The notes under the pieces are model-generated. The model searched no databases and was not told the DNA's origin. It saw only the letters and a program-made list of their open reading frames with translations. The position numbers and the translations under genes were made by a program. This document shows positions 4,045 through 28,874 of a DNA stretch of 33,341 nucleotides, piece by piece (the stretch's first letter is position 1; each line of letters begins with the position of its first letter). Origin of the DNA: Lentisphaeria bacterium (lineage in GTDB: Bacteria > Verrucomicrobiota > Lentisphaeria > Victivallales > UBA1829); NCBI GenBank assembly GCA_017524965.1, contig JAFXUM010000192.1, positions 1 to 33,341 of the forward strand, given 5' to 3'.

Positions 4045-4134
4045 TATTGTTCGGATGCCCGGCACGTGCGGAAAACAGAACGCGGCGGACCGTCCGAACC
4101 CACGCATTTACAACCACTTTTGAGGAGTTTGACC

Positions 4135-5463: not shown

Positions 5464-5524
5464 GGGTACACGAACTGATCGTGCGCTCGCGAAGCAGCGC
5501 ACTTCATCGGCACAGCTTGCTGTG

Positions 5525-5558
5525 GGGATCGTACAAAACGTACGGTCCCGCTTTTTTT
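5525..5558 (+). terminator. Strong intrinsic terminator of the phosphomannomutase gene
   Basis: GGGATCGTAC pairs with GTACGGTCCC (10 bp, one G-U pair) around the loop AAAAC. A GC and seven T residues follow (5552-5558). A smaller hairpin (CACAGC-TT-GCTGTG) lies just upstream at 5511-5524. On the minus strand no T-run follows, so it serves only the plus-strand gene. Confidence 0.88.
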
Positions 5559-5589
5559 GCATAAAAACGGGTAGTTTGAGGGGGGAAAA

Positions 5590-10476: not shown

Positions 10477-11435
10477 GATCCTGCACGGCTCCTGTTCAAA
10501 AGCCAGAGGAAGACCGGACAGCCGACCGCCGCCGTGACCATGCCGACCGGGAGCTCGCGGACCGGCGAGACCACGCGCCCGAGGATGTCCGCGAGCATCA
10601 GGAACACCGCTCCGGCGAGCGCGGCGGGGATCAGGATCTTCCGGTGGGACCCGCCGTGCAGACGGCGCACGATATGCGGCACCACGAGCCCGCAGAACCC
10701 GATGATCCCGGCCATGGACACCGTGACCGCCGCCAGAAGCGAGGCGAGCGCGAGCAGGACGACCGTCATCAGCCGGGCGTTCACGCCGTGGTTCCAGGCG
10801 TATTCCGGGCCGAACGTGAGCAGGTCGACGTCGCCCGCGCGGAACAGCAGAAAAATTGTGGCGGCGGCGAGCAGGACGGCGGCGGGCGCGAGCTGGCGCG
10901 CGGGATCCACGTTCTGCACACTCCCGAGCATCCACCACACCACGCCCGCCATGTCCCGCGAATGCGAAAACGTGATGAGCACCATGAGCAGGCTGGATGC
11001 GAGCGTGCCGATCATCACGCCGCCGAGGAGGAGTTCCTCCGCCGTGCGCCTGCGGACCGCCGCGAAGACCAGCACATTCGCCGTCACCGCGCCCAGCAGG
11101 GCGAAGAGCGGCACGGACATGAACCCCCACGCGCTGAATCCGAGCAGGATCGCGCCCGCCGCGCCGAGGCCCGCACCCCCGGACACGCCCAGCAGGTAGG
11201 GTTCCGCGAGGGAATTGCGGAGCACCGCCTGGAAGACCAGCCCGGAGACGGCAAGCGACGCGCCGACCACGGCAGCCGCGGCGGTCCGGACGATACGGAG
11301 TTCCACGATGGGGTTCAGCGCGCCGTCCTGGATGAATTCGGACAGCGGGATATGGGCGGCGCCGAACAGCACGCCGCAGACGGCGGCGGCAAGCGCGGCG
11401 GCGAGGTAGATCAGGATGATGCGCGCGGTCTTCAT
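10473..11435 (-). CDS. btuC: FecCD/BtuC-type ABC transporter permease
   Basis: A polytopic membrane protein of 320 residues, the usual size of FecCD-family permeases, with about ten hydrophobic segments. Family landmarks are the LRIVRTAAAAVVGASLAVSG segment near the N-terminus, the NSLAEPYLLGVSGGAGLGA region, and the cytoplasmic coupling region GFCGLVVPHIVRRLHGG, followed by the conserved ELPVGMVTAAVGCPVFLWLL end. It overlaps both neighbours by 4 nt (ATGA). It would form the homodimeric channel through which the substrate delivered by the upstream lipoprotein passes. Cobalamin is the likely cargo from context, with iron chelates as the alternative. Confidence 0.85.
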   Translation of the reverse strand: MKTARIILIYLAAALAAAVCGVLFGAAHIPLSEFIQDGALNPIVELRIVRTAAAAVVGASLAVSGLVFQAVLRNSLAEPYLLGVSGGAGLGAAGAILLGFSAWGFMSVPLFALLGAVTANVLVFAAVRRRTAEELLLGGVMIGTLASSLLMVLITFSHSRDMAGVVWWMLGSVQNVDPARQLAPAAVLLAAATIFLLFRAGDVDLLTFGPEYAWNHGVNARLMTVVLLALASLLAAVTVSMAGIIGFCGLVVPHIVRRLHGGSHRKILIPAALAGAVFLMLADILGRVVSPVRELPVGMVTAAVGCPVFLWLLNRSRAGS

Positions 11436-12292
11436 GGCTGGGCGGTCCCGGCGGATTCTTTGCCCGCGAACATCGTTTCGAGGTCGGTTTTCAGGTCCGC
11501 GATGCCGTCGAAGATGCGCGGCCCCGGCCGGAGCAGCGCGGAGTCGTCGCGCGGGATCAGCACGCGTCCCTCGCGGATCGCGCGGATGCCGCTCCACGAC
11601 GGATTCGATTTCCAGTCCTTGCCGTGCGCGAACCAGACGATCACGTCCGGGTCCTCCTTCAGCACGAATTCGAGCGAGATGGACGGATAGCCCTTCTCCG
11701 ATTTCACGATGTTTTTCAGCCCGGCGAGACGCCCGACGGCGTCCGGGAGGGAATCCGCGCCCGCGGTGAGGAGCGGGCTGTCCCAGATCACATAGAGCGC
11801 GCGGAGCGGCTTTTTTTCGGATGCTTCAAGTTCCGCCTCGAATCCCGCGATACGGTCATTGGTGCGTTTCAGCTCATTTTCAGCCTCGCGCGGGCAGTCA
11901 AGCAGTTTGCCCATGAGGGCGACCCATGCGCGGTAGTCGTCGAACCCGTCGCACGGATGCAGTTCGACGGCGATCCCGGCCTGGCGCAGCGCGTCGGCGT
12001 CCTTCGGGTTCACGAATTCGTTGGAGACGACCAGCGCGGGCTTCATGGCGAGGATGCGTTCGAGTTCGGGCTCGGCGAAATTGCCCGCCGTCGGGAGCGA
12101 CTTCACGCTTTCCGGCCAGTCGCACGCCGTGCTCCGGGCGACCAGCTTCCGTTCCTGCCCCAGATGGCAGACCAGTTCGGTCAGCGCGGGCGAGAGCGAG
12201 ACCACGCCGCCCGGCGCGGATTTGCGTTCGTCCGAACACGCGGCGAGGCACAGGATGCAGGCTAGCAGAAGCAGGCTGAACAGACGGCGCAT
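11432..12292 (-). CDS. btuF: BtuF/FepB-type substrate-binding lipoprotein
   Basis: The 286-residue protein starts with a lipoprotein signal peptide ending in LAAC, so Cys19 is the predicted lipid anchor. The mature part has the class III binding-protein pattern: VVSLSPALTELVCHLG, then LPTAGNFAEPELERILAMKP and a second lobe with DVIVWFAHG. This order (SLSPxxTE, G-x-LERIxAxKPDLV) is typical of BtuF and related corrinoid or metallo-chelate binding proteins. It lies 30 nt downstream of the fused methyltransferase-MetF gene and overlaps the permease by 4 nt. Cobalamin binding is an inference from the metH neighbourhood. No cobalamin riboswitch is visible close upstream. Confidence 0.8.
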   Translation of the reverse strand: MRRLFSLLLLACILCLAACSDERKSAPGGVVSLSPALTELVCHLGQERKLVARSTACDWPESVKSLPTAGNFAEPELERILAMKPALVVSNEFVNPKDADALRQAGIAVELHPCDGFDDYRAWVALMGKLLDCPREAENELKRTNDRIAGFEAELEASEKKPLRALYVIWDSPLLTAGADSLPDAVGRLAGLKNIVKSEKGYPSISLEFVLKEDPDVIVWFAHGKDWKSNPSWSGIRAIREGRVLIPRDDSALLRPGPRIFDGIADLKTDLETMFAGKESAGTAQP

Positions 12293-12322
12293 GACTGACC
12301 CTCCGCGTTATCCAAGTTCAAA

Positions 12323-14155
12323 TCACGGCTTCATCACGGCGATCGCCGTCTGGACGTTGCCGAACGGCGCGCTCACGTGGATGCCGCGGACGGCGAACCG
12401 GATGGCGTCGACGGCCTCGCGTGCGATGGCGATGCCCTCAAGGCGCTGTTCCTCGCGCGTTTCCGGGCGCGCCATGCGCTGCATCACGGAATCGGGGACG
12501 ACCACGCCGGGCACCTCGTTCTTCATGAACTCGGCGTTGCGGAGGCTGGCGAGCGGCCAGATGCCGGCGATCACCGGGACGGAGCCGTCGGCGAGCTCGG
12601 GGACGGCTTCGATGAAGCGCAGGAGCGGGACGGTGTCGAAGACCGGCTGGGTCACGACCGCCTCGGCTCCGGCGTCGATCTTCTCGGGGATGCGGCGGAG
12701 TTCGCGCTCCATGTCGATGGCGTTCGGGTCGGCGCCGACGAGGCAGAACGCGGCGGTCTGCTTGCCGATGGACTTGCCGCCGAAATCGACGCCCCGGTTC
12801 AGCGCGGCCTGCACCTTCACGGCGGCGATGGAGTCGAGGTCGAACACGCCGGACGCGAACGGGTAGTCGCCAAGCTTCGGCGGGTCGCCGGTGATGAACA
12901 GGATGTTATGGATGCCCATGGCGGCGCAGCCGAGCAGGTCCGCCTGGATGCCGATCACGTTCTTGTCGCGGCAGCAGCAGTGCAGTACGGTCTCGATGCC
13001 GACTTCCTGCTGGATCTTGATCGCGGTCACGATGGTGGAAACGCGTGAGCTGGCGCGCGGGCCGTCCGGGATGTTGATGACGTCGAATCCCGCCTCGGCG
13101 CAGACTTTCGCCTTGGCGATGGTCGTGTCGAGCAGATAGCCCTGCGGCGGCACGATCTCGACCGCGTTCACCCACTTGCCGGAAGCGAGCTTCGCGGCGA
13201 AGGAGCTTTTTTCGGCGGCGGGAACGGGGTCCAGGAGCGGGACGGACGGCGCGGCGGGCGCGATCTCGACCGCGTGGGCGTGCTTCGCGAGCGGGCTCAC
13301 GCTGCGCGCCATGTCGGCGATGTGCTCGGGCGAGGTGCCGCAGCAGCCGCCGATGCCGCGCACGCCAAGCTGGGCGTAGCGCATGGCGTAGGTGGTGAAA
13401 TACTCCGGGCTGCACATGTAGAGCATGCGGTTGTCCACGCTGCGCGGACTGCCCGCGTTGGGCTGGGCGATCACGGGGAACTTCCTGTCGATCAGCGGCA
13501 GGACGGTTTCGAGCGCACGGAGCATCGCGCCGGGTCCGCTGCAGCAGTTGAGGCCGAACGCGACCGGCGGAACCGGGGCCGCATTGATGCGTTCCAGGAT
13601 GGCGGAAACGGGTTCGCCCTTCGCGGTCTGCGCCTTTTCGTCCAGCGCGAAGCTGAGCACGAACGGCACGCCGTCCGCGGACGATGCGGCGGCTTTCAGC
13701 GCGAGGTCGAGGTCGGCGAGGCTGGCGAGCGTCTCGAACATCAGGAAATCGGGCGCGGCCTTCGCGAGCACGGAGACCTGTTCGGAGAGGATCGTGAGCG
13801 GATCGAGGAACGCCGGGAGCTCGCCGACGGGGCCGACGGACGCGGCGACCATGGCGTTGTCGCCCGCCACCTCGCGTGCGAGCTTGACGGCTGCTTCGTT
13901 GATCGCGGCGGTCTGTTCGGCGAGGCCGAATTTCATGAGCTTGGCGCGGTTCGCGCCGTAGGAATTGGTCGTGAGTACTTCGGCTCCGGCGTCGAGGTAC
14001 GCCGTGTGGATGGCGCGGATCACGTCGGGCCGGGCGAGGCAGAGGTTTTCGAACGAGATGTTGACGAAGAAATTCCGCCGGTATATTTCGGTGCCCATCG
14101 CGCCGTCGAAGATCACGATGCGGTCATGCAGGGCATTTTGAAGAGACTGTGACAT
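12323..14155 (-). CDS. Bifunctional homocysteine S-methyltransferase / 5,10-methylenetetrahydrofolate reductase
   Basis: A two-domain fusion of 610 residues, like Bacillus YitJ. The N-terminal half is a homocysteine methyltransferase barrel: FDGAMGTE at 16-23 and zinc cysteines in GLNCC (204, 205) and GGCCGT (271, 272). The C-terminal half from about residue 320 is a MetF-type flavoprotein, with EIVPPQG (Glu333, equivalent to the MetF proton donor region), NIPDGPRASSRVS and ITGDPP (Asp424). It would make methyl-THF from methylene-THF and possibly transfer a methyl group to homocysteine. It follows metH by 78 nt and precedes the btu genes by 30 nt, so methyl-THF producer, consumer and cofactor importer are adjacent. 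The start ATG at 14153-14155 gives an N-terminus that aligns with the family. Confidence 0.92.
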   Translation of the reverse strand: MSQSLQNALHDRIVIFDGAMGTEIYRRNFFVNISFENLCLARPDVIRAIHTAYLDAGAEVLTTNSYGANRAKLMKFGLAEQTAAINEAAVKLAREVAGDNAMVAASVGPVGELPAFLDPLTILSEQVSVLAKAAPDFLMFETLASLADLDLALKAAASSADGVPFVLSFALDEKAQTAKGEPVSAILERINAAPVPPVAFGLNCCSGPGAMLRALETVLPLIDRKFPVIAQPNAGSPRSVDNRMLYMCSPEYFTTYAMRYAQLGVRGIGGCCGTSPEHIADMARSVSPLAKHAHAVEIAPAAPSVPLLDPVPAAEKSSFAAKLASGKWVNAVEIVPPQGYLLDTTIAKAKVCAEAGFDVINIPDGPRASSRVSTIVTAIKIQQEVGIETVLHCCCRDKNVIGIQADLLGCAAMGIHNILFITGDPPKLGDYPFASGVFDLDSIAAVKVQAALNRGVDFGGKSIGKQTAAFCLVGADPNAIDMERELRRIPEKIDAGAEAVVTQPVFDTVPLLRFIEAVPELADGSVPVIAGIWPLASLRNAEFMKNEVPGVVVPDSVMQRMARPETREEQRLEGIAIAREAVDAIRFAVRGIHVSAPFGNVQTAIAVMKP

Positions 14156-14202
14156 GGGATGGTTCCGCTGGTTCGATTGGGGTTCGCGTTTACTTCAGCT
14201 TA

Positions 14203-14232
14203 TTAATATGCCGTCTTTTTTCTATTTTTCAA
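14203..14232 (-). promoter_or_regulatory. Possible internal promoter between metH and the fused metF gene
   Basis: On the minus strand TTGAAA (14227-14232), an 18-nt spacer and TATTAA (14203-14208) sit just after the metH stop codon in a short AT-rich stretch. It would let the metF-btu genes be transcribed independently of metH. Confidence 0.4.
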
Positions 14233-14233
14233 G

Positions 14234-17200
14234 TCATTTGGCGGGGAAATGCGACTGCGACAGCAGGACTTTCATGCGTTCGACGGAGAATCCGCGGGCG
14301 GCGGCGAGCGCGGCGATCTGGTCGTTCCCGATCGGGCCGAGCGCACGGTAATCCGCCCTCGGGTCCGGGATCACGAAGGCGCAGACCGAGGAGGGCGGCG
14401 ACATCATGAAATTCGAGGTGAGTTCCACGAACTCGTCCTGAATGTCGAACAGGTCGAGCAGATGGAATATCTCGCGTTTGAGGCTGTGGTCGGGCAGGAC
14501 CGGATAGCCGGGCGCGGGCGCGATGCCGGACGGCGGATCGGATTCTTTCCGCCAGCCCCAGAAGCTTGTGGAAATAAACTCGAAAAGCTCCGACGCGGCG
14601 GCGTCCGCCAGGAAATTCGCGAGCGTGCGGTCGAGCAGGGAAACGTAGTCGTCGCCGGGCGTCGCCGGGACTTTCACGGACAGCACGAACATGCCGAGCC
14701 AGTCGCCGATGAAGTCCGCGAGGGAACGGCAGTCGCCGGTCTGGGCGCGCGGGAACGTGATGACCGCGGAGTCGCCGGCGCCGTCTTCGCGCAGCGTCGC
14801 GTGACGGCTGGTGAACACTTTGAACGAGTCGCCTTCGAGGCGTTCCACAGGGAAAATGCCCTCCCGGGACTCGATGGAGAACTTTGCCTCGGCGAGGCGT
14901 TTTTTCGCGTCCGCAATGAGGTTTCCGGCGGCCTCGGACGGCGTTTTCCAGGCGCGTGCGAACGCGTCCCAGTCAAGCCTGCCGGCAAGTTCGGATGCGT
15001 TAAAGAAGTGCCCGGTCTCGACCTCGGGAGCATCGGGATCCTCTTCCGGCTTATACCGCGGGACGGGGCAGAACGGCTTTTCGCGGGAGGCTTTCGCGCA
15101 GGCGTCCGCGTAGGGGATAAGCTCGGGGACGGCGCGTTTCGCGGCCTTCCCGGTCAGCTCGTCGTAGAAGGCGCGCAACGATTCGAGGTAAGCGCCGCGT
15201 TTGTCCGGGTTCATGAGCGTGTTCACCACGACCGCGGAATCCGAGGCGTCCGTGGTGTGGATGACCGGGCCGGAGTAGAGCGGCTGAAGTTTCAGCGCGG
15301 TGTGCAGCGCCGAGGTGGCGGCGCCGCCGACGAGGATCGGGATCTTCAGGCCGCGCCGTTCGAACTCGGCGACCGTGCGCGCCATCTCGTCGAGCGAGGG
15401 CGTGATCAGCCCGCTGAGACCGACGAAATCGGCGTGTTCGCGTTCGGCGGCGTCGGCGATCTCGTTGGCGGGGACCATCACGCCGAGGTCGTGGATCGCG
15501 CAGTTGTTGCACTGGAGCACGACCGACACGATGTTCTTTCCGATGTCGTGGACGTCGCCCTTCACCGTGGCGAACACGCCGACCGGGCATTTCGCGCCGG
15601 ACGAGGCGGATTTCGAGGCTTCGATCACGGGCATCAGCACGGCGACCGCGCGCTTCATCACGCGGGCGGTCTTCACGACCTGCGGCAGGAACATCTTGCC
15701 CGCGCCGAAGAGCTCGCCGGTCTTCCGCATGCCGTCCATGAGCGGCCCCTCGACGATCGCCATCGGGTCCGGGTACGCCGCAAGCGCTTCCGCCATGTCG
15801 GCGTCGACGAAGGAATCGTCCCCGCGCACGAGGGAGGCGGCGATGCGTTCCGCGAGCGGGAGCGAACGCCATTCCGGGGCGGTCTCCGCCTCATTTTTCG
15901 AAGTCGCGCCTGCCGATTTCACGGACGCGGCGAGTTCGAGGAGGCGTTCCCCCGCGCCGGGCGAGGTGTTGAGCACGACCGCCTCGACGGCGTCGCGGAG
16001 ATCGGCGGGGAGCATGTCGTAGTTGCCGAGCTGGGCGGCGTTCACGATGCCCATGGTCAGGCCGGCGTCGATGGCGTGCTTCAGAAAAACGGTATGGATC
16101 GCGCCGCGGATGAGGTCGTTGCCGCGGAACGAGAACGAGACGTTGCTGATGCCGCCGCTGATGCCGCAGAGCGGGAAGCGCCGGTGCAGCTCGGCGACGG
16201 ACCGGATGAAGTCGGCGGCGTAGTCGTCGTGCCCGGCGATGCCGGTCGCCACGGCGAACACGTTCGGGTCCAGCACGATGTCCTCCTCGGCGAACCCCGC
16301 CTGTCCGGTCAGGAGCTTCACGGAGCGCGACAGCGTTTCGATGCGGCGTTCGTAGCGGTCCGCCTGTCCCTTCTCGTCGAACGCCATCACGAGGACGGCC
16401 GCGCCGAGGCGGCGTATCTCGCGCGCCTTCGCAAGGAACGGCTCTTCGCCTTCCTTGAGGGAGATCGAGTTCACGATGGCGCGTCCCTGCACGCAGCGGA
16501 GCGCGATGCGGACGACGTCCCAGTTCGAGGAGTCGATCATGAACGGCACGGCGGCGATGTCGGGCTCGCCCGCGGCGTACAGCAGGAACCGCTTCATGGC
16601 GGCGGGCGCGTCGAGCAGGGCGTCGTCCATGTTGACGTCGATGATGGCCGCGCCGTTTTCGATCTGGTGGCGCGCGATCGCCATGGCGCCGGGCATGTCG
16701 TCCGCCTTCACGATGTTCAGGAACTTGCGGGACCCGGCCACGTTGGTGCGTTCGCCGATGTTGATGAAATTCTTGTCGCGGGAGGCGGTGAAGGCGTTGA
16801 GGCCGGAGAGTCGCAGGAGACGCGGCTGAGGCGACGGAACGCGGGGCTTCACGCCGTCGAGCGCCTTCGCGATCGCCGCGATGTGGGCGGGCGTCGTGCC
16901 GCAGCATCCGCCCGCGATGTTGAGCTGTCCGGCGTCAGCGAGCGAACGGATCACGGCGGCCATCTGTTCGGGCGTCTGGGTGTATTTGCCCTCGACGTCG
17001 GGCAGCCCGGCGTTGGGGTGCGCGCTGACGAGGAACGGCGACTTCGCCGCCATTTCCGCGATGTGGGGCCGGAGTTCCTCCGCGCCGAGCGCGCAGTTGA
17101 ACCCGACGGAGAAGAGGTTCCGGGCGTGGGAGACGGAGATCAGGAAGGCTTCGGCGCACTGCCCGGAGAGCAGTCGTCCGCTGGCGTCGCTGAGCGTGGC

Positions 17201-17833
17201 GGAGACCATGACAGGGACGTCGCGTCTGCGGGATGCCATCGCCTCCTCGGCGGCAAAGAGCGCCGCCTTGCAGTTCAGCGTGTCGAATACGGTTTCGATC
17301 AGGAAAAGGTCCGCGCCCGCGTCGAGCATCGCCTCCATGCACGTCCGGTAGGTCGCGGCGAGCTCGTCGAACGTGACATCGCGGGCGGCGGGGTCCTCCA
17401 CGTCGGACGACATGCCGGCGGTGCGTCCGGTGGGGCCGACGCTTCCGGCGACGAGGCGCGGTTTGGAGAGATCGCGGGCGGTGAACTCGTCGGCGACCTC
17501 GCGGGCGTTGCGCGTCCCTGCGAACGCCAGGTCGTACACGCGGTCCTGCAACCCGTAGTCGAGCTGGGAGAAATAATTCGAGTTGAACGTGTTGGTCTCG
17601 ATGATGTCCGCCCCGGCCTCAAGATAGGCGCGGTGCACGGATTTCACCAGGTCGGGACGCGTGATGTTCAGCACGTCGTTGTCGCCGGTCAGCGGGACCG
17701 GATGCGACGCGAACTCGCCGCCGTTGAAGTCGGCCGCGGTCGGGTGTCCCGCCTGAAGCATCGTGCCCATGGCGCCGTCCAGGATGAGGATTTTTTGTGC
17801 TGCGAGAGATCGGATTTCCTGTAAGGTGAGCAT
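14234..17833 (-). CDS. metH: Cobalamin-dependent methionine synthase
   Basis: Transfers the methyl group of 5-methyl-THF through cobalamin to homocysteine. The 1199-residue protein shows all four modules: the homocysteine barrel with zinc ligands Cys247 and Cys310/Cys311, a pterin-binding barrel (FINIGERTNVAGS from about 356), the B12 cap and Rossmann domain with GDVHDIG and axial His762, and a C-terminal AdoMet reactivation domain (GIFPVER, SLADF, PAPGYPVLPDH). The residue numbers of the zinc site equal those of E. coli MetH. The second of two adjacent ATGs is chosen because GGAGG lies six bases before it; starting at 17836 is possible. The reactivation domain is divergent: the Arg before PAPGY in E. 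coli is Ala1105 here and the preceding segment is shorter. It heads the methionine/B12 block. Confidence 0.96.
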   Translation of the reverse strand: MLTLQEIRSLAAQKILILDGAMGTMLQAGHPTAADFNGGEFASHPVPLTGDNDVLNITRPDLVKSVHRAYLEAGADIIETNTFNSNYFSQLDYGLQDRVYDLAFAGTRNAREVADEFTARDLSKPRLVAGSVGPTGRTAGMSSDVEDPAARDVTFDELAATYRTCMEAMLDAGADLFLIETVFDTLNCKAALFAAEEAMASRRRDVPVMVSATLSDASGRLLSGQCAEAFLISVSHARNLFSVGFNCALGAEELRPHIAEMAAKSPFLVSAHPNAGLPDVEGKYTQTPEQMAAVIRSLADAGQLNIAGGCCGTTPAHIAAIAKALDGVKPRVPSPQPRLLRLSGLNAFTASRDKNFINIGERTNVAGSRKFLNIVKADDMPGAMAIARHQIENGAAIIDVNMDDALLDAPAAMKRFLLYAAGEPDIAAVPFMIDSSNWDVVRIALRCVQGRAIVNSISLKEGEEPFLAKAREIRRLGAAVLVMAFDEKGQADRYERRIETLSRSVKLLTGQAGFAEEDIVLDPNVFAVATGIAGHDDYAADFIRSVAELHRRFPLCGISGGISNVSFSFRGNDLIRGAIHTVFLKHAIDAGLTMGIVNAAQLGNYDMLPADLRDAVEAVVLNTSPGAGERLLELAASVKSAGATSKNEAETAPEWRSLPLAERIAASLVRGDDSFVDADMAEALAAYPDPMAIVEGPLMDGMRKTGELFGAGKMFLPQVVKTARVMKRAVAVLMPVIEASKSASSGAKCPVGVFATVKGDVHDIGKNIVSVVLQCNNCAIHDLGVMVPANEIADAAEREHADFVGLSGLITPSLDEMARTVAEFERRGLKIPILVGGAATSALHTALKLQPLYSGPVIHTTDASDSAVVVNTLMNPDKRGAYLESLRAFYDELTGKAAKRAVPELIPYADACAKASREKPFCPVPRYKPEEDPDAPEVETGHFFNASELAGRLDWDAFARAWKTPSEAAGNLIADAKKRLAEAKFSIESREGIFPVERLEGDSFKVFTSRHATLREDGAGDSAVITFPRAQTGDCRSLADFIGDWLGMFVLSVKVPATPGDDYVSLLDRTLANFLADAAASELFEFISTSFWGWRKESDPPSGIAPAPGYPVLPDHSLKREIFHLLDLFDIQDEFVELTSNFMMSPPSSVCAFVIPDPRADYRALGPIGNDQIAALAAARGFSVERMKVLLSQSHFPAK

Positions 17834-17901
17834 CATGTGCCTCCGTTGCATTCAAGAGAGATGACTTTGCGGCGGATTCGGCGGATTCGCGACCGGGAAG
17901 C

Positions 17902-18775: not shown

Positions 18776-18805
18776 TTGACAAATCCCGCGGCGGGATTAC
18801 ATTAT
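18776..18805 (+). promoter_or_regulatory. Promoter with palindromic operator filling the spacer, ahead of the U32-like array
   Basis: TTGACA (18776-18781) is followed directly by the perfect 17-bp palindrome AATCCCGCGGCGGGATT (18782-18798). The -10 would be TACATT (16-nt spacing) or CATTAT (18-nt spacing). Dyad symmetry exactly between -35 and -10 is the classical place for a repressor, or a MerR-type activator. It lies about 65-70 nt upstream of the first U32-like gene. Confidence 0.6.
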
Positions 18806-18868
18806 GGAAAGCATCCGAACAATACGATTCACTATTCAACCGTGTCTTATCCTGCCATACTGTCAAAT

Positions 18869-20014
18869 ATGAGCTCGAAAACGATTACCAGAACGAAATT
18901 CGCCGTCGGACATTACCTGACGGAAGATCCTGCCAGTCCGACATCATTCGCCGAACTGGCAAAACGCTTCGCCGACAGACTTCGCGAAGTCTATTTCCCG
19001 TGGCCCGGCCTTTCGAACGCCCGCGCGAAAGTTTACGACAAGCCGGACGACGAAGCGCGCATCGTGACCGATTTGAAATACTGCCGCGAACACGGCATGA
19101 AGCTGGATATTCTGGCGAACGCGACCTGCTACGGAGAAAAATCTTTCACGGAGGAGCAGCGGCTTCAGATCACCGGGATCATCAAACATCTCGACGAACT
19201 CGGCCTGTACCCCGAGATCGTCACGACCACATCGCCGTATATCGCGAAGGTATTCAAGGTCAATTTTCCCGATATCGAGGTCCGCGCCTCCGTCAATATG
19301 CGTCTTCGGAACACTCTGGCGCTCGAATATCTCGCACCGCTTTACGATTCCTACTACATTTGCCGCGACGTCCAGCGCGACCTGCCGACGTTCCGGAAGA
19401 TGGCCGCATGGTGCCACGACCACGGCAAAAAACTCTGCATGCTGGCGAACAGCGGCTGCGTGCGGAACTGCCCGTGGCAGGTCTTCCATGAAACGCTTCT
19501 TTCCCACAAGTTCGTCTCGGCCTTCCCGGAAATGCTCGAACAGAATATCGAACTTGTTTGCAACCATATCTTCATGAAAAACAGGCAGATTTCCGAATTC
19601 ATGCGTTGCACGTGGATCCGGCCGGAAGACATCCATGTGTTCGAGCCCGAGCTTGAGACGATCAAGCTTTCCACCCGCGAAGCAAAATATCCGCACGAGA
19701 TCGTGGCCGCTTATGTGAGCGGCGACTATGACGGCGACCTGCTCCGCCTGATGGACCCGTACCACGGTTATTCGTTCCGTCCGAACCGCCTCGACAACAA
19801 ATCGTTCCCCGCCGACTGGGTGACCAGCGGGATCGCTGCGAAATGCGCGGAAAACTGCGTCCACTGCGGCAAATGCGAAGAGGTCATGCGGAACGCGCTG
19901 AAATACGACGTCAACCACGAACTGCGGGCATCCTCCCTCTCTTTCACCAATAACTTTTATTTGAAGGCTCCCGAACGGATACATCCCGTCAAGCTGGGGC
20001 CGGATTTCAAATGA
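18869..20014 (+). CDS. U32/PrtC-like cysteine-rich protein, paralogue 1
   Basis: A 381-residue protein resembling the collagenase-like PrtC/U32 group (the superfamily that also holds UbiU, UbiV, RlhA and TrhP). Conserved stretches are EVYFPWPG at 40-47, NATCYGE at 84-90, TTTSPYIA at 119-126, RASVNMR at 139-145, ICRDVQRDLPT at 164-174, CMLANSGCVRNCPW with Cys197 and Cys201, WIRPEDIH at 249-256, and a terminal Cys326-x3-Cys330-x2-Cys333-x2-Cys336 cluster. The cysteines suggest an iron-sulfur centre. The frame is open back to 18776, but MSSKTITRTKFAVGHYL matches the starts of the two downstream paralogues, so ATG 18869 is used although no strong SD is seen. Peptidase activity should not be assumed, since several U32 members are hydroxylation enzymes. 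Confidence 0.68.
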   Translation: MSSKTITRTKFAVGHYLTEDPASPTSFAELAKRFADRLREVYFPWPGLSNARAKVYDKPDDEARIVTDLKYCREHGMKLDILANATCYGEKSFTEEQRLQITGIIKHLDELGLYPEIVTTTSPYIAKVFKVNFPDIEVRASVNMRLRNTLALEYLAPLYDSYYICRDVQRDLPTFRKMAAWCHDHGKKLCMLANSGCVRNCPWQVFHETLLSHKFVSAFPEMLEQNIELVCNHIFMKNRQISEFMRCTWIRPEDIHVFEPELETIKLSTREAKYPHEIVAAYVSGDYDGDLLRLMDPYHGYSFRPNRLDNKSFPADWVTSGIAAKCAENCVHCGKCEEVMRNALKYDVNHELRASSLSFTNNFYLKAPERIHPVKLGPDFK

Positions 20015-20094
20015 AAGCGGCAGAAAGACGGTCGCACCAACGGCCCGGTTGAGACGGAAAGCCTCCCATTCATGAACTACCCCCCCCGGTAAAA

Positions 20095-20358
20095 ATGAGC
20101 ACGGAAAAAGCAGACAGAACCCAGTTCGCAAACGGTCACTTCCTGACGGGAAAGCAGGACGATCCGAAGTCTTTTCCGGAACTGGCCAGACGCTATGCAC
20201 CCGGACTCCGCGAGGTCTGTTCCGCATGGCCGGGACTTCCGAACGGCCGCGCCCGTCTCCACAAACGGGAGAACGACGGCAGCTTCTCCCTGCCGGCGCC
20301 GGAACGGAAGGTCCCTGCCGGGCTTGAAATGACGTCCGCGCTCAAGACCGCGGCTTGA
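20095..20358 (+). pseudogene. Truncated fourth U32-like paralogue (N-terminal stump)
   Basis: The 87-codon frame begins MSTEKADRTQFANGHFLTG and continues with SFPELARRYAPGLREV and AWPGLPNGRARL, matching residues 1-53 of paralogue 1 almost position by position (SFAELAKRFADRLREV, PWPGLSNARAKV). After about residue 58 similarity ends and the frame finishes in unrelated sequence. None of the cysteine motifs is present. A run of eight C residues lies just upstream (20081-20088). It looks like a relic of duplication followed by deletion, though a short expressed protein cannot be excluded. The promoter-like TATAAT of paralogue 2 starts right after it. Confidence 0.7.
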
Positions 20359-20369
20359 AAACGATATTA

Positions 20370-20375
20370 TATAAT
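20370..20375 (+). promoter_or_regulatory. Possible -10 element ahead of paralogue 2
   Basis: A consensus TATAAT lies 33 nt upstream of the paralogue 2 start codon. No -35 at the right distance is clear (TTGAAA at 20355 is only 9 nt away), so this could be an activator-dependent promoter or chance. Confidence 0.35.
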
Positions 20376-20408
20376 GCTACATATTTGAAAACAACAAGGA
20401 TTCCACTC

Positions 20409-21557
20409 ATGAACTGGCAAACCTATCAGCTGACGAACAAACCAGTCAGGATTCCGACGCGGGACGAGATCGAGGCCCGCAGGAAATACGCATTCGGGTA
20501 CTTTTTCGAGAAACGCGGAGGCCGCACGTTCCGCGACCTCGTCGAACAGTATGCGCCATTCCTGAAAGAAGTTTATTTCCCGTGGCCGGGACTGCGCTCA
20601 GCCCGCGAGCTGGACAAGGATATCGCTCCGCTCCGCAGGAAACTCATTGATGACCTGAAGTTCTGCCGCTCGAAAGGTCTTGCCCTCGACCTGCTGGTTA
20701 ACGCGACATGCTACGGGGACACGGCGCTCACGTCCGTGCAGCGGGAGGAATACTTCGGCCATTTGAAGGAGCTCTCCTCGTTCGGACTCATGCCGGAAAT
20801 CGTCACGACCACGTCGCCGTACATCGCGACGATCACGAAGAAATTCGATGCGTCCGTGGACCGCAGAGCATCCGTCAACATGCGGCTGAACTCGACTCTC
20901 GCGATGGAATACGTCGCCGAAACGTTCGATTCGTTCTACATCTGCCGCGATCTCCAGCGCGACCTGCCGACCGTGAAAATGTTCGCCGAATGGGGGAAAA
21001 AGAACGGCAAGGGTATCTGCATGCTGGCGAACAGCGGCTGTCTGCGCTATTGCCCGTGGCAGACGTTCCACGAAACACTCCTCGCCCATGATTTCCGGCA
21101 TATCCAGGGAGAAATGAGGAAACTCGACTTGCCGTCGACCCTGTGCGTCGGAATCGTCCAGTCCAAGCAGTATGAGGAGATACTCCGCGCCTCCTGGATC
21201 CGCCCCGAGGACCTGTACCGATACGAACCGTATATCTCCGTCTTCAAGCTCTCAACCCGCGAAGCCGACCGTCCCGACCTGATCCTGCAGGCATATACCT
21301 CGCGCTCCTTCAACGGCGATCTGCTCCTGCTTCTGGATCCGGGTTTTTCGTTCATGGTCCGCCCGTATGTCTTTGATAACAAGGAGTTCCCGAAAGAATG
21401 GAGCGAAGGGAAGATCGCAGGAAAATGCGCGAGCAACTGCACGCACTGCGGCAAATGCACCGAAGTCATGAATCTCGTTTTCAAGCGCAGTCCGAACCTG
21501 CCGCCTCCGCCCAAGTATTCCATGGCTCCTTATAAGCCGCTCGTCATCCCGGATTAA
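20409..21557 (+). CDS. U32/PrtC-like cysteine-rich protein, paralogue 2
   Basis: The 382-residue protein is clearly related to paralogues 1 and 3 throughout. It carries EVYFPWPG at 54-61, NATCYGD at 98-104, EIVTTTSPYIA at 130-140, RASVNMR at 153-159, YICRDLQRDLPT at 177-188, CMLANSGCLRYCPW with Cys211 and Cys215, WIRPEDLY at 263-270, KLSTR at 280-284 and the Cys340-x3-Cys344-x2-Cys347-x2-Cys350 cluster. Its N-terminus is about 15 residues longer than in the others (MNWQTYQLTNKPVRIPTRDE). The ATG at 20409 is preceded by AAGGA. The C-terminal tail is proline-rich and unlike the others. Conservation of the same six cysteines in all three copies argues that each is functional. Substrate and reaction are unknown. 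Confidence 0.68.
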   Translation: MNWQTYQLTNKPVRIPTRDEIEARRKYAFGYFFEKRGGRTFRDLVEQYAPFLKEVYFPWPGLRSARELDKDIAPLRRKLIDDLKFCRSKGLALDLLVNATCYGDTALTSVQREEYFGHLKELSSFGLMPEIVTTTSPYIATITKKFDASVDRRASVNMRLNSTLAMEYVAETFDSFYICRDLQRDLPTVKMFAEWGKKNGKGICMLANSGCLRYCPWQTFHETLLAHDFRHIQGEMRKLDLPSTLCVGIVQSKQYEEILRASWIRPEDLYRYEPYISVFKLSTREADRPDLILQAYTSRSFNGDLLLLLDPGFSFMVRPYVFDNKEFPKEWSEGKIAGKCASNCTHCGKCTEVMNLVFKRSPNLPPPPKYSMAPYKPLVIPD

Positions 21558-21606
21558 CGGCCCCAGTCCGATGCCAGGCAGCCTCCCCAAGTGAAAGGAT
21601 TGCACA

Positions 21607-22701
21607 ATGAATGAAAAGCCTCGACAGCCCAAAAAGAAATTCGCGGTCGGCCATTTCTACAACAACAGCCATTGTGTTTTTCAGGATGTGGCCGGGCGTT
21701 ATCTGGATCATATTCAGGAGATCTTCTTCTCCTGGCCGGAACTGAAAAACGCCCGCAAAATGACGGGCGACCCGGAAGCTCTGAAAGACCTGATCGCCGC
21801 CGACATGCGCTGGGCCCGGTCCAAAGGGCTTTCGCTCGATCTGCTCATCAACGCCATGTGCTACGGCGACGAGGCGTTCACGCCGGAGCAGCACGCCCGC
21901 GTGATCGGGGCGCTCGCCGACATGGACCGCCGAGGCATCCTGCCGGAGACCGTCACGGTCATCTCGCCGTATCTGGCGCAGATCATCAAGCGCGAATTCC
22001 CGAAGATCGACATCCGGGCGTCCGTGAATGCACGCGTAGACAGCATCATCTCCATGGAATACATGGCGCCGATGTTCGACTCCTATTACATCAGCCGCGA
22101 CCTTCAGCGCGATCTGCCCACGCTCCGCGCGTTCCGCAAATGGACCCGCGACCACGGCAAGAAGCTGTGCATGCTCGTGAACGGAAGCTGCCTGCGGAAC
22201 TGCCCGTTCCACTTCTTCCACGAGACGCTCAATTCGCACGGACTGGACCGGACCGTGGCGGAAACGAAACGCACGGGCATCCAGCCGTCGCGCTGCATCA
22301 ACATGTACATGAAGAAACAGTACGAGGAGATCCTGCGTTCGTCCTGGATCCGTCCCGAGGACCTGCACATCTACGAAGACGAGGTCGACGTGGTCAAGCT
22401 CTCGACCCGCACCGTGCCCGATCCCGAACGCATCGTCCGCGCCTACTGCGAACGCAGCTACGACGGAAACCTGCTGCGCCTGCTCGACCCGGTCTACACG
22501 TTCTTCTTCCGTCCGTACATCCTCGACAACAAACGGTTCCCGGCCGACTGGGCGGAAAGCGGCATCGGCGGCAAATGCGCCACCAGCTGCACGCACTGCG
22601 GACGCTGCACGGAAGTCCTGTCGAAAGTCCTGGTCGTCGATCCCGAGTTCGGGAAAGCAAGGGCCGCGGACTTCCATTTCGTCCCGAAGATGAAGTTCTG
22701 A
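21607..22701 (+). CDS. U32/PrtC-like cysteine-rich protein, paralogue 3
   Basis: A 364-residue protein, the most divergent of the three: FFSWPEL replaces YFPWPGL, NAMCYGD replaces NATCYG, and ISRD replaces ICRD, so that Cys is not essential to the family. It keeps the SPY motif, RASVNAR, RDLQRDLPT, the Cys195-x3-Cys199 pair (GSCLRNCP), WIRPEDLH at 247-254, KLSTR, and the terminal Cys324-x3-Cys328-x2-Cys331-x2-Cys334 cluster. The start ATG has AAAGGA eight bases upstream and lies 49 nt after paralogue 2, so the two are probably co-transcribed. A glycosyltransferase gene begins 50 nt downstream. Divergence among the copies suggests different substrates rather than recent dosage duplication. Confidence 0.68.
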   Translation: MNEKPRQPKKKFAVGHFYNNSHCVFQDVAGRYLDHIQEIFFSWPELKNARKMTGDPEALKDLIAADMRWARSKGLSLDLLINAMCYGDEAFTPEQHARVIGALADMDRRGILPETVTVISPYLAQIIKREFPKIDIRASVNARVDSIISMEYMAPMFDSYYISRDLQRDLPTLRAFRKWTRDHGKKLCMLVNGSCLRNCPFHFFHETLNSHGLDRTVAETKRTGIQPSRCINMYMKKQYEEILRSSWIRPEDLHIYEDEVDVVKLSTRTVPDPERIVRAYCERSYDGNLLRLLDPVYTFFFRPYILDNKRFPADWAESGIGGKCATSCTHCGRCTEVLSKVLVVDPEFGKARAADFHFVPKMKF

Positions 22702-22751: not shown

Positions 22752-23570
22752 ATGACACAGTCTCCGTTATTCACTGTAGTTCTGGCCGGGTATCAGACCG
22801 AGCCGTATCTGCGGAAAGCTTTGGACTCCATTGCGAGCCAGACATTCCGCAATTTCGAGGTCATCTGCTACGTGGAGGAATCGACCGACCGTTCGCTCGA
22901 AATCTGCCGGGCAGAAGCGGAACGGGATCCCCGGTTCAAAGTCGTGACCGGACCGAAAAGCGGATGCGTGGGACCGACGCGCAATTACGGGATAGATCAT
23001 GCTTCCGGGGAATATATCGTCTTCGTGGACGGAGACGACTGGATTATGGAAGACATGCTGGAAAAATTGTCGGTCAAGCTCGAACAAACCGGCCCCCTTG
23101 ATGTTCTGGCTTTCGCCTGCGTCAGCGTTTCCGACGAGGATGCGGATTTGAAAACCACGCCGAAGCTTTCCAATTTTTCCGCCCGGGACACGGACACGTT
23201 GTTTTCCGGGCCGGACGCCATCAGGCGTTCCGGGCGGAACGGCGGACAGTTTTTCGCGTACACGGTCCTGAATACCTATCGTACCGCCTTCCTGCGGGAA
23301 AACCATCTGCATCAGCCGGGGGGAATACTGGAAGATTTCGCATGGATGCCGCATGTATGGTATCACGCAAAACGAATGGCATATCTGGACGAGGTCTTTT
23401 ATGTCTACCGGCGCAGACCCGGTTCTCTTACGACGGAAGCCTCCGCCCGCGTCATTCACGACATCGCGAAAACGGTTCTGCCGGGCCTGCTTGACCTGAT
23501 ATCGGCAGAACCGGTTCCCGAAGACATCCTTACCATCTGGAGCAACCAGTGGATTGCCGTGTTTTACTGA
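22752..23570 (+). CDS. Family 2 glycosyltransferase, interrupted by an in-frame TGA
   Basis: A GT-A fold glycosyltransferase of 272 residues before the stop. The N-terminus FTVVLAGYQTEPYLRKALDS, the nucleotide-binding stretch through GPTRNYGIDHASGEYIVF, and the metal-binding DGDDW at 93-97 are typical of GT2. The segment ILEDFAWMPHVW, with its acidic pair, resembles the acceptor or catalytic ED region. The frame continues past the TGA at 23568-23570 for another 80 codons of plausible sequence, so the protein was probably about 350 residues. The core catalytic domain is intact, so a shortened enzyme may still work. It likely adds sugars to a surface polysaccharide. It sits 50 nt after the U32-like array with no terminator between, so co-transcription is possible. 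The SD is weak. Confidence 0.75.
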   Translation: MTQSPLFTVVLAGYQTEPYLRKALDSIASQTFRNFEVICYVEESTDRSLEICRAEAERDPRFKVVTGPKSGCVGPTRNYGIDHASGEYIVFVDGDDWIMEDMLEKLSVKLEQTGPLDVLAFACVSVSDEDADLKTTPKLSNFSARDTDTLFSGPDAIRRSGRNGGQFFAYTVLNTYRTAFLRENHLHQPGGILEDFAWMPHVWYHAKRMAYLDEVFYVYRRRPGSLTTEASARVIHDIAKTVLPGLLDLISAEPVPEDILTIWSNQWIAVFY

Positions 23571-23810
23571 TTCATGTTCCATCCCGTCAGCTCCAGAAAG
23601 ATCGGGGACGACGACCGGCTGGATGCCCTGAACGCGCTGTTTGCGGAGAACGGGAAGAAACGGTTCCTGCGTCTTTTATCTTATGCCACCTTCCCGAAAC
23701 GCCTCGCCCGCCCCCTGATCCTGCTTGCGGCAAAAGGATTCCTGTTTCCCGCAAAAGTCTATTTCCGCAATCTCTATTATCCCCTGATAGAACGGAGAAG
23801 CAAGGCATGA
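23571..23810 (+). pseudogene. C-terminal continuation of the interrupted glycosyltransferase
   Basis: This stretch is in the same frame as the upstream glycosyltransferase, separated only by one TGA. It encodes FMFHPVSSRKIGDDDRLDALN and then a basic hydrophobic tail (FPKRLARPLILLAAKGFLF) ending ERRSKA, which looks like the amphipathic membrane-binding end of many GT2 enzymes. An ATG at 23574 could restart translation, but no SD precedes it. The simplest reading is a nonsense mutation or a sequencing error. Confidence 0.6.
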
Positions 23811-26466: not shown

Positions 26467-28563
26467 TTATAAACCATTCTGAAGATATTGAAGATAATCC
26501 CTGCGGTTTGCCTCATTCTTTCTGTCCATATCCCGTATCATTTGTTCAGTCCTTCGATTGATTTCCATTTCCTGAGCTCTTAATCTGGCCTGTTCCGCAT
26601 CAGTCAGAACTCTGCCTGTACTTGTTTCGGGATTTGATGAAGATGCTTTTGTGTTACTTTCTTCTTTCCTTTTCGGCTTGTTCTCATTCAGGTTATATCT
26701 GTTTTTGTCGGTCGATTCCACAACAGCTTCTTTCCTGTTCAAATCGGCGGAAATAACCTTGTATTGTTCTTCTCCGGTTTTCGAATTGCCGACTTTAAAA
26801 GTGTTTCCAACTGAAACGGAAAACTCCCGGTTATTCAGTGCATTGACGAAATTGACACGAAGAACAGGATCATAAATAGGTTCTTTGATGCGGCATGGAA
26901 TGCGTTCCTGTCTGCCAACACGTTTGATATAAACCTCGTATGTTGTTCTGAAGAATCCTTCATAGACAGAGCCTGTACGGGTAGCTTTAATGTCAACGAT
27001 GCTGAAATTGGTGTTATTGTGATTGAATGTGTCATTGATGCGAACGACCACGGAACGTTTGTGGTTGTTGCGAATTACATTAAATGAAGCTTCCCATGTC
27101 CCTTTCCCCCCTCGTTCTTCGATGGAAACCAGCTCCAGTCCGGAGAATCTTTGTTGGCTGACAGAAGAAATGTATACTTGTGTAATATATTTCGGATGAC
27201 TGCCGGGGTCACGGGGATTTGTTCCGGCTTCCGTCTCTTGAGCATATGTAAATCCATCGGAATCCTCATCCGAGTTTTCCTTTTGTCTCATTTTTTCTTG
27301 TTCAATGGCTTTTTGTTCGGCTTCCGCCTCTTTGCGGATTTCTTCCTCTTTCCGTACTCTTTCCGTCTCAACTTTTTGACGTTCTTCTTCCTCCTGACGA
27401 CGTTTTTCCTCTTCCTGTTTTTTCTCTAGCTGCATTTTTTGAATCTGTTCCTCTTCTTGCTTTTTTTGTTCCTGTTCCTTTCGAATCTGTTCTCTTGTTG
27501 CGTCGCGAATCATCAGTTTCCATTTGTCAGCCAAATATTTGTCTTTTCTTGCTCCGAATCCATAGGCAAGCTCCTCCATCGCTTTCATGTATCCTTGTTC
27601 TGCGGCTTTCGTATACCAGTCAATGGCCTCTTCCTCATGTCCTAGTGACCAACGATACAATTCCGCCATTTTATATTGCTTTTCTGGATTACTATCGGTA
27701 TTGCTTTTTTCCATTTCCAACAACAGTTCGCATATCTTCAATTCATCCTTCCCCTGATAATCAGCTTTCTGAAACCACTTTATGGCTTCGCTGTAGTCTT
27801 TATCAACACCCAAGCCGTATTCATATAAAAGGCCAAGGTTATAGCACGCCTGAATTGATTCCATTTCTGGAATTGATTCCATTTCTGCGGCTGTTTTGTA
27901 CCATGGAAGAGCTTTTTCTGCGAGTTTACTAAAGGAGGAATCATTTAACGCTTCAAATTTGTGATCTGATGGATTGAAATAACATGTTCCGCATTGATAC
28001 GGCGCATCCTTATGCCCCTGTTCCGATGCTTTTTCGAACCAGAAAATGGCTTCCGATTTGCTTTCTCTGACTCCAATCCCGGCCTGATACAATTTTCCAA
28101 GCCTGTATTGCGCGTTCATGTGCCCTTGCTCGGCGGCTTTATGGAACCATCGGATTGCTTCAGGGATATTCAATGCCGTGCCTTCCGGTTTTGAATAACA
28201 GCACCCGAGTTCGTATTGAGCTTCGGGATGACCTTTCTCCGCAGAATTCTTGAAGTGTTCAAACGCCGCATCATAACGATGTTCCCTTTGTGCTTCCATG
28301 CCCTTTTTGTAGGCAATACTGGCGATTATGCCCGGGAATACGATGATTCCGAGTATGATGGCTACAACAAAAACTGCCGCGACGACGGACGAAACGATAA
28401 TTGTTTTCTTTTGAGGTCTTGGAGAGCATGTTTGTTTGAAGCTTATATCTTTCGATGCGGTAAAGGTTGCCCCGCAGCTTTCGCATTTTACAGCTTGGCC
28501 GAGGCAGGAATCGTCAATGACATATTCCTGACTGCAGTTCGGACATTTGATTTTCACTTCCAT
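26467..28563 (-). CDS. Membrane-anchored Sel1-repeat protein with zinc ribbon and DSDG-type segment
   Basis: A 698-residue multidomain protein. Residues 7-30 form a CxxC...CxxC zinc ribbon (Cys7, Cys10, Cys27, Cys30) of the kind often fused to envelope or signalling proteins. One transmembrane helix lies at about 54-80. Sel1/TPR-like repeats follow from 90 to about 350 (units such as EAIRWFHKAAEQGHMNAQYR). A charged Glu/Lys/Arg coiled coil occupies 354-430. The segment SDEDSDGFTYAQETEAGTNP at 431-450 looks like a calcium-binding thrombospondin-3-type repeat. A beta-rich C-terminal domain of unknown type follows. The start at 28563 has TAGGAGG upstream; the longer frame adds no homologous residues. 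GC content (about 43 %) is far below its neighbours, suggesting transfer or relaxed selection. Likely a scaffold in the cell envelope; no precise function is visible. Confidence 0.8.
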   Translation of the reverse strand: MEVKIKCPNCSQEYVIDDSCLGQAVKCESCGATFTASKDISFKQTCSPRPQKKTIIVSSVVAAVFVVAIILGIIVFPGIIASIAYKKGMEAQREHRYDAAFEHFKNSAEKGHPEAQYELGCCYSKPEGTALNIPEAIRWFHKAAEQGHMNAQYRLGKLYQAGIGVRESKSEAIFWFEKASEQGHKDAPYQCGTCYFNPSDHKFEALNDSSFSKLAEKALPWYKTAAEMESIPEMESIQACYNLGLLYEYGLGVDKDYSEAIKWFQKADYQGKDELKICELLLEMEKSNTDSNPEKQYKMAELYRWSLGHEEEAIDWYTKAAEQGYMKAMEELAYGFGARKDKYLADKWKLMIRDATREQIRKEQEQKKQEEEQIQKMQLEKKQEEEKRRQEEEERQKVETERVRKEEEIRKEAEAEQKAIEQEKMRQKENSDEDSDGFTYAQETEAGTNPRDPGSHPKYITQVYISSVSQQRFSGLELVSIEERGGKGTWEASFNVIRNNHKRSVVVRINDTFNHNNTNFSIVDIKATRTGSVYEGFFRTTYEVYIKRVGRQERIPCRIKEPIYDPVLRVNFVNALNNREFSVSVGNTFKVGNSKTGEEQYKVISADLNRKEAVVESTDKNRYNLNENKPKRKEESNTKASSSNPETSTGRVLTDAEQARLRAQEMEINRRTEQMIRDMDRKNEANRRDYLQYLQNGL
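27852..27887. repeat. Perfect 18-bp tandem duplication inside the Sel1 gene
   Basis: The unit GAATTGATTCCATTTCTG occurs twice in a row, duplicating six residues and giving MESIPEMESIQ in the protein. It keeps the frame and lies at the edge of a Sel1 repeat, probably replication slippage. Confidence 0.75.
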
Positions 28564-28652
28564 CGTTTCCAACCTCCTATTGATAGTTCGATCGTTTCGT
28601 TTTGCCGATTTCAAAGCAAAATGATCTCGGAGGGAGGTCCGTGCCGGGGCAA

Positions 28653-28874
28653 TAAAAAAGCCGAACGCCAAATCATTGCCTTACACTGCTCCGTAGGTCC
28701 AGCCAGAACCCGCTAAACACATGCAAAGATGAAGAAGCGTCCGGCAGGATGTGTAGACACAATCCGTCCGGGCACAATTCACCTGTGTGTTTAGCAAAAG
28801 CATTGAAACTGGCTGGTTTACGGAGCATTTGCTGAATGGAATCGGATTTCAAATAGCAGCCGTCTTTCCGGCGG
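28653..28874 (-). ncRNA. Rod-shaped structured RNA, 6S-like candidate or long leader of the Sel1 gene
   Basis: Between a good promoter (28881-28909) and a T-run (28654-28659) the minus-strand sequence folds into a long hairpin. The closing stem GCTCCGTA/TACGGAGC (28819-28826 with 28688-28695) leads to CCAGCCAG/CTGGCTGG, then an asymmetric 13/5-nt internal loop, then a perfect 10-bp stem GCTAAACACA/TGTGTTTAGC (28786-28795 with 28712-28721), AGGTGAA/TTCATCT, and an apical CCGG-GGAT-GTGT stem. A rod with an asymmetric central bubble is the architecture of 6S RNA, the RNA polymerase-binding regulator. Total length of about 220 nt also fits loosely. The alternative is a 5-prime leader of the Sel1 gene that starts 90 nt beyond the T-run. 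No reading frame here looks coding. Confidence 0.5.

What the first reader, a model, noticed from the sequence alone, without database searches (positions are those of the whole stretch)
18776..22701. Tandem array of three U32/PrtC-like, six-cysteine paralogues with its own operator
Three divergent copies (381, 382 and 364 residues) lie head to tail and share invariant blocks (SPY, RASVN, RDLPT, WIRPED, KLSTR) plus a C-x3-C pair and a C-x3-C-x2-C-x2-C cluster. The cysteine pattern suggests an iron-sulfur protein. U32 relatives include enzymes that hydroxylate ubiquinone, rRNA and tRNA without oxygen, so RNA or cofactor modification is as likely as proteolysis. Three copies plus a fossil next to a glycosyltransferase is not a layout I know. 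Could be a modification system with three substrate specificities.
Basis: partly seen in the sequence, partly recalled or inferred. Interest (0 to 1): 0.66.

Follow-up and report, generated by a model that had tools for sequence, protein, structure and literature searches.

The report
Triplicated non-canonical U32 iron-sulfur enzymes
A rumen bacterium carries three old, still-selected copies of an unclassified protein related to enzymes that add oxygen to molecules without using air, and in related bacteria a single copy sits beside a vitamin-B12-type reductase in sugar-use gene clusters, which hints at an undescribed kind of anaerobic chemistry.

Summary
The array is real: A 18869-20014, B 20409-21557, C 21607-22701, plus the remnant of a fourth copy (20095-20358). 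The family occurs in 12 of 13 genomes of the genus: A and B in all 12, C in six. A, B and C form separate supported clades under purifying selection.

U32 homology holds but is remote. Pfam, NCBIfam and PDB sequence searches miss the three proteins; the AlphaFold2 model's best solved match is U32 protein 5d88, and profile comparison agrees. Eight cysteines, not six, are conserved in 72 relatives. The canonical U32 motif CX6CX15CX3C is absent.

The "operator" is a conserved promoter; its perfect palindrome is not conserved.

New: outside the genus, members usually sit beside a protein with the reductive dehalogenase/QueG (cobalamin class III) fold, often in sugar-use loci. Among 48 non-genus genomes the strong form of that partner occurs in 21 of 23 with the family and none of 25 without. 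The window's genus lacks it. This favours small-molecule, sugar-linked anaerobic redox chemistry over RNA modification or proteolysis. Clusters, substrate and reaction are unproven.

The parts
18776..18803 (+). Promoter TTGACA-16-TACATT of the array
   Evidence: Consensus scan 10/12; conserved in 11 genus arrays; extended exact form unique in the genome
18782..18798 (.).
18869..20014 (+). Copy A, 381 aa, non-canonical U32-superfamily protein
20095..20358 (+). Remnant of a fourth, A-type copy: N-terminal 61 residues kept, about 300 codons missing; frame still open
   Evidence: 62% identity over 61 aa to the C9 copy; 77% DNA identity over 159 nt
20409..21557 (+). Copy B, 382 aa; AlphaFold2 model pLDDT 90.7
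21607..22701 (+). Copy C, 364 aa, present in six of twelve array genomes
22752..23570 (+). GT2 glycosyltransferase downstream; neighbour in some but not all genus arrays, not counted as part of the system
   Evidence: PF00535 E 1.5e-24; synteny

Best explanation
The three genes encode paralogous enzymes of an unclassified subfamily of the U32 superfamily. Each is predicted to be a TIM-barrel-like protein with eight conserved cysteines, which I read as two [4Fe-4S] clusters: one from C101/C211/C215/C246 near the barrel mouth and one ferredoxin-like from the C-terminal CX3CX2CX2C. In most relatives outside the genus a single copy is paired with a protein of the reductive dehalogenase/QueG (cobalamin class III) fold, often within IclR- or LacI-regulated carbohydrate-use loci. 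The most likely job is therefore oxygen-independent redox chemistry on a small molecule of sugar catabolism, with the U32 protein as the oxidising or oxygen-transferring partner. In the window's genus that partner is absent and the gene was duplicated before the genus radiated; A and B, whose genes overlap by ATGA in 6 of 10 arrays, probably act as a pair as UbiU-UbiV do, and C is an optional extra copy. Shown: array, conservation, remote U32 homology, cysteines, clades, linkage to the partner gene. Inferred: clusters, pairing, chemistry, substrate class.
For: Array conserved in the genus, three supported clades, dN/dS 0.13-0.19. AlphaFold2 pLDDT 90.7, best PDB fold match U32 5d88 at E 6e-8 with the next at 1.4e-5, hhalign to canonical U32 E 7e-7 with an unrelated control at probability 1.8, two outlying relatives over Pfam's U32 cut-off. 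Eight conserved Cys. Partner gene within three genes in 50 of 81 non-genus loci, same strand in 47, and genome co-occurrence 21 of 23 versus 0 of 25. Partner fold: all 46 hits below E 1e-3 are dehalogenases or QueG. Sugar-use neighbours: SSS symporter, GHL6, GH39, rhamnosidase, GH129, aldose epimerase, Gfo/Idh/MocA, AraA-like. U32 precedent for Fe-S hydroxylation and a UbiU-UbiV heterodimer (PMC6747719; PMC11574389).
Against: The window's own genus lacks the partner, so function may have changed there. 31 of 81 loci show no partner nearby, some because contigs end. The U32 relationship is remote: alignment A3 alone gives only probability 55.6, and the stronger A1 score rests partly on two outlying rows. 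The canonical motif is absent. Cluster geometry could not be measured. Neighbour genes vary from locus to locus, so the substrate is not pinned. The A-B pairing rests on gene overlap and analogy only.
Confidence: 0.5

Rival explanations
1. RNA modification enzymes: the copies hydroxylate or otherwise modify tRNA or rRNA, as RlhA and TrhP do, each with its own site.
For: RlhA and TrhP are U32 proteins that modify rRNA and tRNA (product names). The partner gene of relatives is related to QueG, a tRNA-modifying enzyme.
Against: The family is patchy (72 of 289 genomes of the phylum sample), unlike a housekeeping RNA enzyme; non-genus neighbours are carbohydrate-use genes; the partner scores better against dehalogenase than QueG. 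Ten of 13 genus members also hold a canonical U32 gene.
Confidence: 0.17
2. Accessory or electron-transfer proteins: the U32-like protein delivers electrons or helps mature the class III reductase (and another enzyme in the window's genus) rather than acting as an enzyme itself.
For: Ferredoxin-like CX3CX2CX2C at the C-terminus and tight genomic linkage to a reductase that would need an electron donor.
Against: Invariant polar residues across the barrel (E54, R66, R153, N157, R180, R184, H221, H227, R265, E267) look like an active site; the family persists and multiplies in genomes without that reductase.
Confidence: 0.18
3. Peptidases of the PrtC/collagenase type with structural Fe-S clusters.
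For: Only the superfamily name and the name of the best structural match, 5d88.
Against: The characterised U32 proteins reviewed are Fe-S hydroxylases; cysteines are among the most conserved features; neighbours are not peptidase-like.
Confidence: 0.04
4. Radical SAM enzymes, since C340-x3-C344-x2-C347 matches the spacing CX3CX2C.
For: Cysteine spacing only.
Against: The motif lies at the C-terminus after the barrel and is followed by a fourth Cys; no radical SAM model matched in Pfam or NCBIfam and none appears among the listed fold matches.
Confidence: 0.02

Closest known systems
UbiU-UbiV, RlhA and TrhP (U32 oxidases)
   Same: Superfamily by fold and profile; conserved cysteines suited to Fe-S; adjacent paralogue pair like ubiU-ubiV
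   Different: No CX6CX15CX3C (0 of 72 rows versus 23 of 25 canonical); four extra C-terminal cysteines; no sequence-level match to these families; different neighbours
U32 'peptidase' MK0906 (PDB 5d88)
   Same: Best solved-structure match, E 6.1e-8, TM-score 0.62 over the target
   Different: 12% identity; about 130 residues shorter; function of 5d88 not established in the sources read here
Reductive dehalogenases and QueG (cobalamin class III), for the linked partner gene only
   Same: All 46 Foldseek hits of the partner below E 1e-3 are of this kind; sequence matches to both
   Different: About 350 aa, far below both NCBIfam cut-offs, often in sugar-use loci, and absent from the window's genus

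Membership tests
U32 superfamily (Pfam PF01136 and relatives) | TIM-barrel-like fold matching a solved U32 structure | tested here: met
   Best PDB match of a pLDDT 90.7 model is 5d88, E 6e-8
U32 superfamily (Pfam PF01136 and relatives) | Match to the Pfam U32 model over its cut-off | tested here: inconclusive
   Not for A, B or C nor anywhere in this genome; met only by outlying relatives L053 and L054, over a part of the model; 15 of 47 members at E up to 1
U32 superfamily (Pfam PF01136 and relatives) | Profile-profile similarity to canonical members | tested here: met
   A1 probability 91.8, E 7e-7; A3 weaker, 55.6; control 1.8
U32 oxidases (UbiU/UbiV/RlhA/TrhP) | CX6CX15CX3/4C cysteine motif | tested here: not met
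   0 of 72 rows; UbiU and UbiV also deviate (PMC6747719)
U32 oxidases (UbiU/UbiV/RlhA/TrhP) | Four or more conserved cysteines able to bind a [4Fe-4S] cluster | tested here: inconclusive
   Eight conserved Cys; binding itself not testable here
U32 oxidases (UbiU/UbiV/RlhA/TrhP) | O2-independent hydroxylation with prephenate as oxygen donor | not testable with these tools
   Needs an assay
PrtC-type U32 peptidases | Peptidase activity | not testable with these tools
   No assay possible; no sequence support beyond the superfamily
Radical SAM | CX3CX2C motif within a radical SAM domain | tested here: not met
   The spacing occurs only at the C-terminus; no radical SAM domain hit
Reductive dehalogenase or QueG (partner gene) | NCBIfam cut-off of TIGR02486 or TIGR00276 | tested here: not met
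   39-51 bits versus cut-off 160, and 26-46 bits versus 200
Reductive dehalogenase or QueG (partner gene) | Cobalamin class III fold | tested here: met
   Fold matches E 1e-10 to 5e-8, none of another kind below 1e-3

The most novel reading that the evidence does not exclude
A U32-type Fe-S protein and a reductive-dehalogenase-type corrinoid protein form a new two-enzyme module for oxygen-atom chemistry on sugar-derived molecules without O2 in anaerobic Lentisphaeria, Kiritimatiellae and relatives; in the window's genus the module was rebuilt as an A-B(-C) U32 complex that works without the corrinoid partner.
Probability: 0.22. Interest if true: 0.78.

Novelty: new variant of a known kind. Interest (0 to 1): 0.52.

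Why it matters
The U32 superfamily is one of few known routes to hydroxylation without oxygen, and few of its subfamilies have a known function. This subfamily has a different cysteine layout (possibly two clusters), is missed by the Pfam and NCBIfam models tried here, and is linked to a cobalamin class III reductase relative, often in sugar-use loci. My searches of the open-access library found no description of such a pairing. If the linkage reflects one pathway, it points to unknown anaerobic chemistry in gut and sediment bacteria, and a cultured species, Oligosphaera ethanolica (L091, L111), carries the pair and could be used to test it.

Tried and rejected
Dedicated operator: unsupported, because the palindrome is not conserved while the promoter is; one other exact copy exists in the genome, so no sign of a regulon. 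Glycosyltransferase as part of the system: rejected, not constant across the genus. Array as replacement for lost canonical U32 enzymes: considered because this genome has none over cut-off; rejected because 10 of 13 genus members have one and the genome is 89% complete. Corrinoid partner elsewhere in this genome: only a partial 33%-identical hit. Defence system: no PADLOC match. phmmer of B against PDB sequences found nothing; the A1 profile search gave repeat-protein hits that look like chance, and 5d88 only at E 0.83. Literature searches for U32 with QueG-like or dehalogenase genes found nothing relevant. My first gene caller picked antisense shadow ORFs; it was retrained on family codon usage and still errs in places (for example window 4066-5460 versus 4108-5562).
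Full report
OBSERVATION. The longer frame of copy A (TTG 18776, 412 aa) would start at the promoter's -35 hexamer, so ATG 18869 is preferred. A fossil lies between A and B: 20095-20358 is 62% identical over 61 residues to a fourth full copy on contig C9 and ends in a stretch that resembles that copy's C-terminus, so about 300 codons are missing; the N-terminal match is strong (E 1e-22), the tail match weak (E 0.026).

CONSERVATION. A search of 61 related genomes found the family in 12 of 13 genomes of the genus, usually as a head-to-tail array. A maximum-likelihood tree separates A (100/99), B (100/99) and C (100/100), so the duplications predate the radiation of the genus; A and B are in all 12 genomes, C in six, and G012 and G009 have further copies. 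Nei-Gojobori dN/dS is 0.13-0.19 in all three, although synonymous change in A and B is close to saturation. Synonymous difference is lower in C (0.32) than in A and B (0.48-0.49) for the same species, which suggests later spread of C by transfer or conversion, or stronger codon constraint. B starts within the last codons of A (ATGA) in 6 of 10 arrays; in the window the fossil separates them by 394 bases.

FAMILY. Pfam, NCBIfam and PDB sequence searches give no U32 hit for the three proteins, only weak ferredoxin-like matches at the C-terminus of A and C (PDB tested with B only). Evidence for U32 comes from four sides. AlphaFold2 with 72 sequences gives pLDDT 90.7 and pTM 0.88. Foldseek's best PDB match is 5d88, a U32 protein, E 6.1e-8, with the next at 1.4e-5. 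hhalign against 25 canonical U32 sequences gives probability 91.8 and E 7e-7 for the broad alignment A1, but only 55.6 and 1e-4 for A3; an unrelated control gives 1.8. Two outlying relatives pass Pfam's U32 cut-off over part of the model. I accept superfamily membership and note that it is remote.

CYSTEINES. Eight cysteines are conserved: C101, C211, C215, C246, C344, C347 and C350 in 72 of 72 rows and C340 in 71. None of the 72 has CX6CX15CX3C, which 23 of 25 canonical proteins have. UbiU and UbiV also depart from that motif and still bind [4Fe-4S] (PMC6747719), so an unusual layout does not exclude a cluster.

CONTEXT. Eighty-one unique loci outside the genus were examined with a home-made gene caller. 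A gene of about 350 aa (cluster c1) lies within three genes of the family in 50, on the same strand in 47. c1 matches reductive dehalogenase and QueG models far below their cut-offs, PceA, NpRdhA and QueG by sequence, and only dehalogenase and QueG structures by fold below E 1e-3 (model pLDDT 85.8). Cobalamin binding by c1 is inferred from its family. In 48 genomes outside the genus, strong c1 matches (E below 1e-120) occur in 21 of 23 with the family and none of 25 without; that threshold was chosen after seeing the scores, and weaker c1 relatives do occur in a few genomes without the family (G015, G047, G058). Fisher p is 1e-11 by genome and 2.5e-7 with genera collapsed approximately; neither corrects for phylogeny. 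The two exceptions, G020 and G027, are one genus whose copies are sister to the window's genus in the tree. Within the window's genus c1 is absent apart from two weak hits. Other neighbours include IclR regulators, LacI-type regulators recognised by eye, SSS symporters, GHL6, GH39, rhamnosidase, GH129, aldose epimerase, Gfo/Idh/MocA and arabinose-isomerase-like genes. Each of these occurs in a minority of loci.

DISTRIBUTION. In a sample of 289 genomes of the phylum, 72 carry the family. Named records include Lentisphaeria, Kiritimatiellae and Oligosphaera ethanolica, and some labelled Bacteroidales or Lachnospiraceae whose labels I did not check.

REGULATION. TTGACA-16-TACATT upstream of A is conserved in 11 genus arrays (one with TTGAAA), and its extended exact form is unique in this genome. 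The palindrome is perfect only in the window and occurs once elsewhere in the genome. No operator can be claimed.

INTERPRETATION. A sugar-linked, oxygen-independent redox enzyme family, commonly paired with a class III corrinoid-type protein and amplified without it in this genus, fits the evidence best. The A-B pairing follows the UbiU-UbiV example and gene overlap only. RNA modification and an electron-transfer or maturation role remain possible. Nothing here shows the substrate or reaction.

NOVELTY. A known superfamily; a subfamily missed by the curated models used here, with a different cysteine layout and a linked partner gene for which I found no description in the open-access library. 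I rate it a new variant of a known kind, interest 0.52.

Noticed in passing
window 11435-17851 (-): Directly upstream and divergent: a MetH-like methionine synthase, a homocysteine methyltransferase/MTHFR-like protein and a BtuF-like lipoprotein (named by reading the sequences), conserved beside the array in most genus members. All would use or bind B12 or methyl groups; relation to the array unknown.
   Followed up: partly
window 21607-22701 and orthologues: Copy C differs less at synonymous sites between the same species (0.32) than A and B do (0.48-0.49), as if it had spread later.
   Followed up: partly
G000, G005, G006 whole genomes: No canonical U32 gene over Pfam's cut-off in these three genus members, although ten others have one of about 770-860 aa. 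Incomplete assemblies may explain it.
   Followed up: partly
G000:C275:1847-1859: The only other exact copy in the genome of the core palindrome TCCCGCNGCGGGA.
   Followed up: no
L053 2415-3611, L054 7643-8851: More distant relatives, over Pfam's U32 cut-off, sharing a neighbour family (c97) instead of the dehalogenase-like partner: a bridge between this subfamily and classical U32 proteins.
   Followed up: partly
window 26470-28671 (-) and 31315-33339 (+): A Sel1-repeat protein with a possible zinc ribbon and, at the contig end, a Hanks-type protein kinase.
   Followed up: no
window 23574-23810 (+): A 78-aa ORF that continues the glycosyltransferase family downstream of a stop, so the GT gene may be split or shortened here compared with the 350-390 aa versions in relatives.
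   Followed up: no
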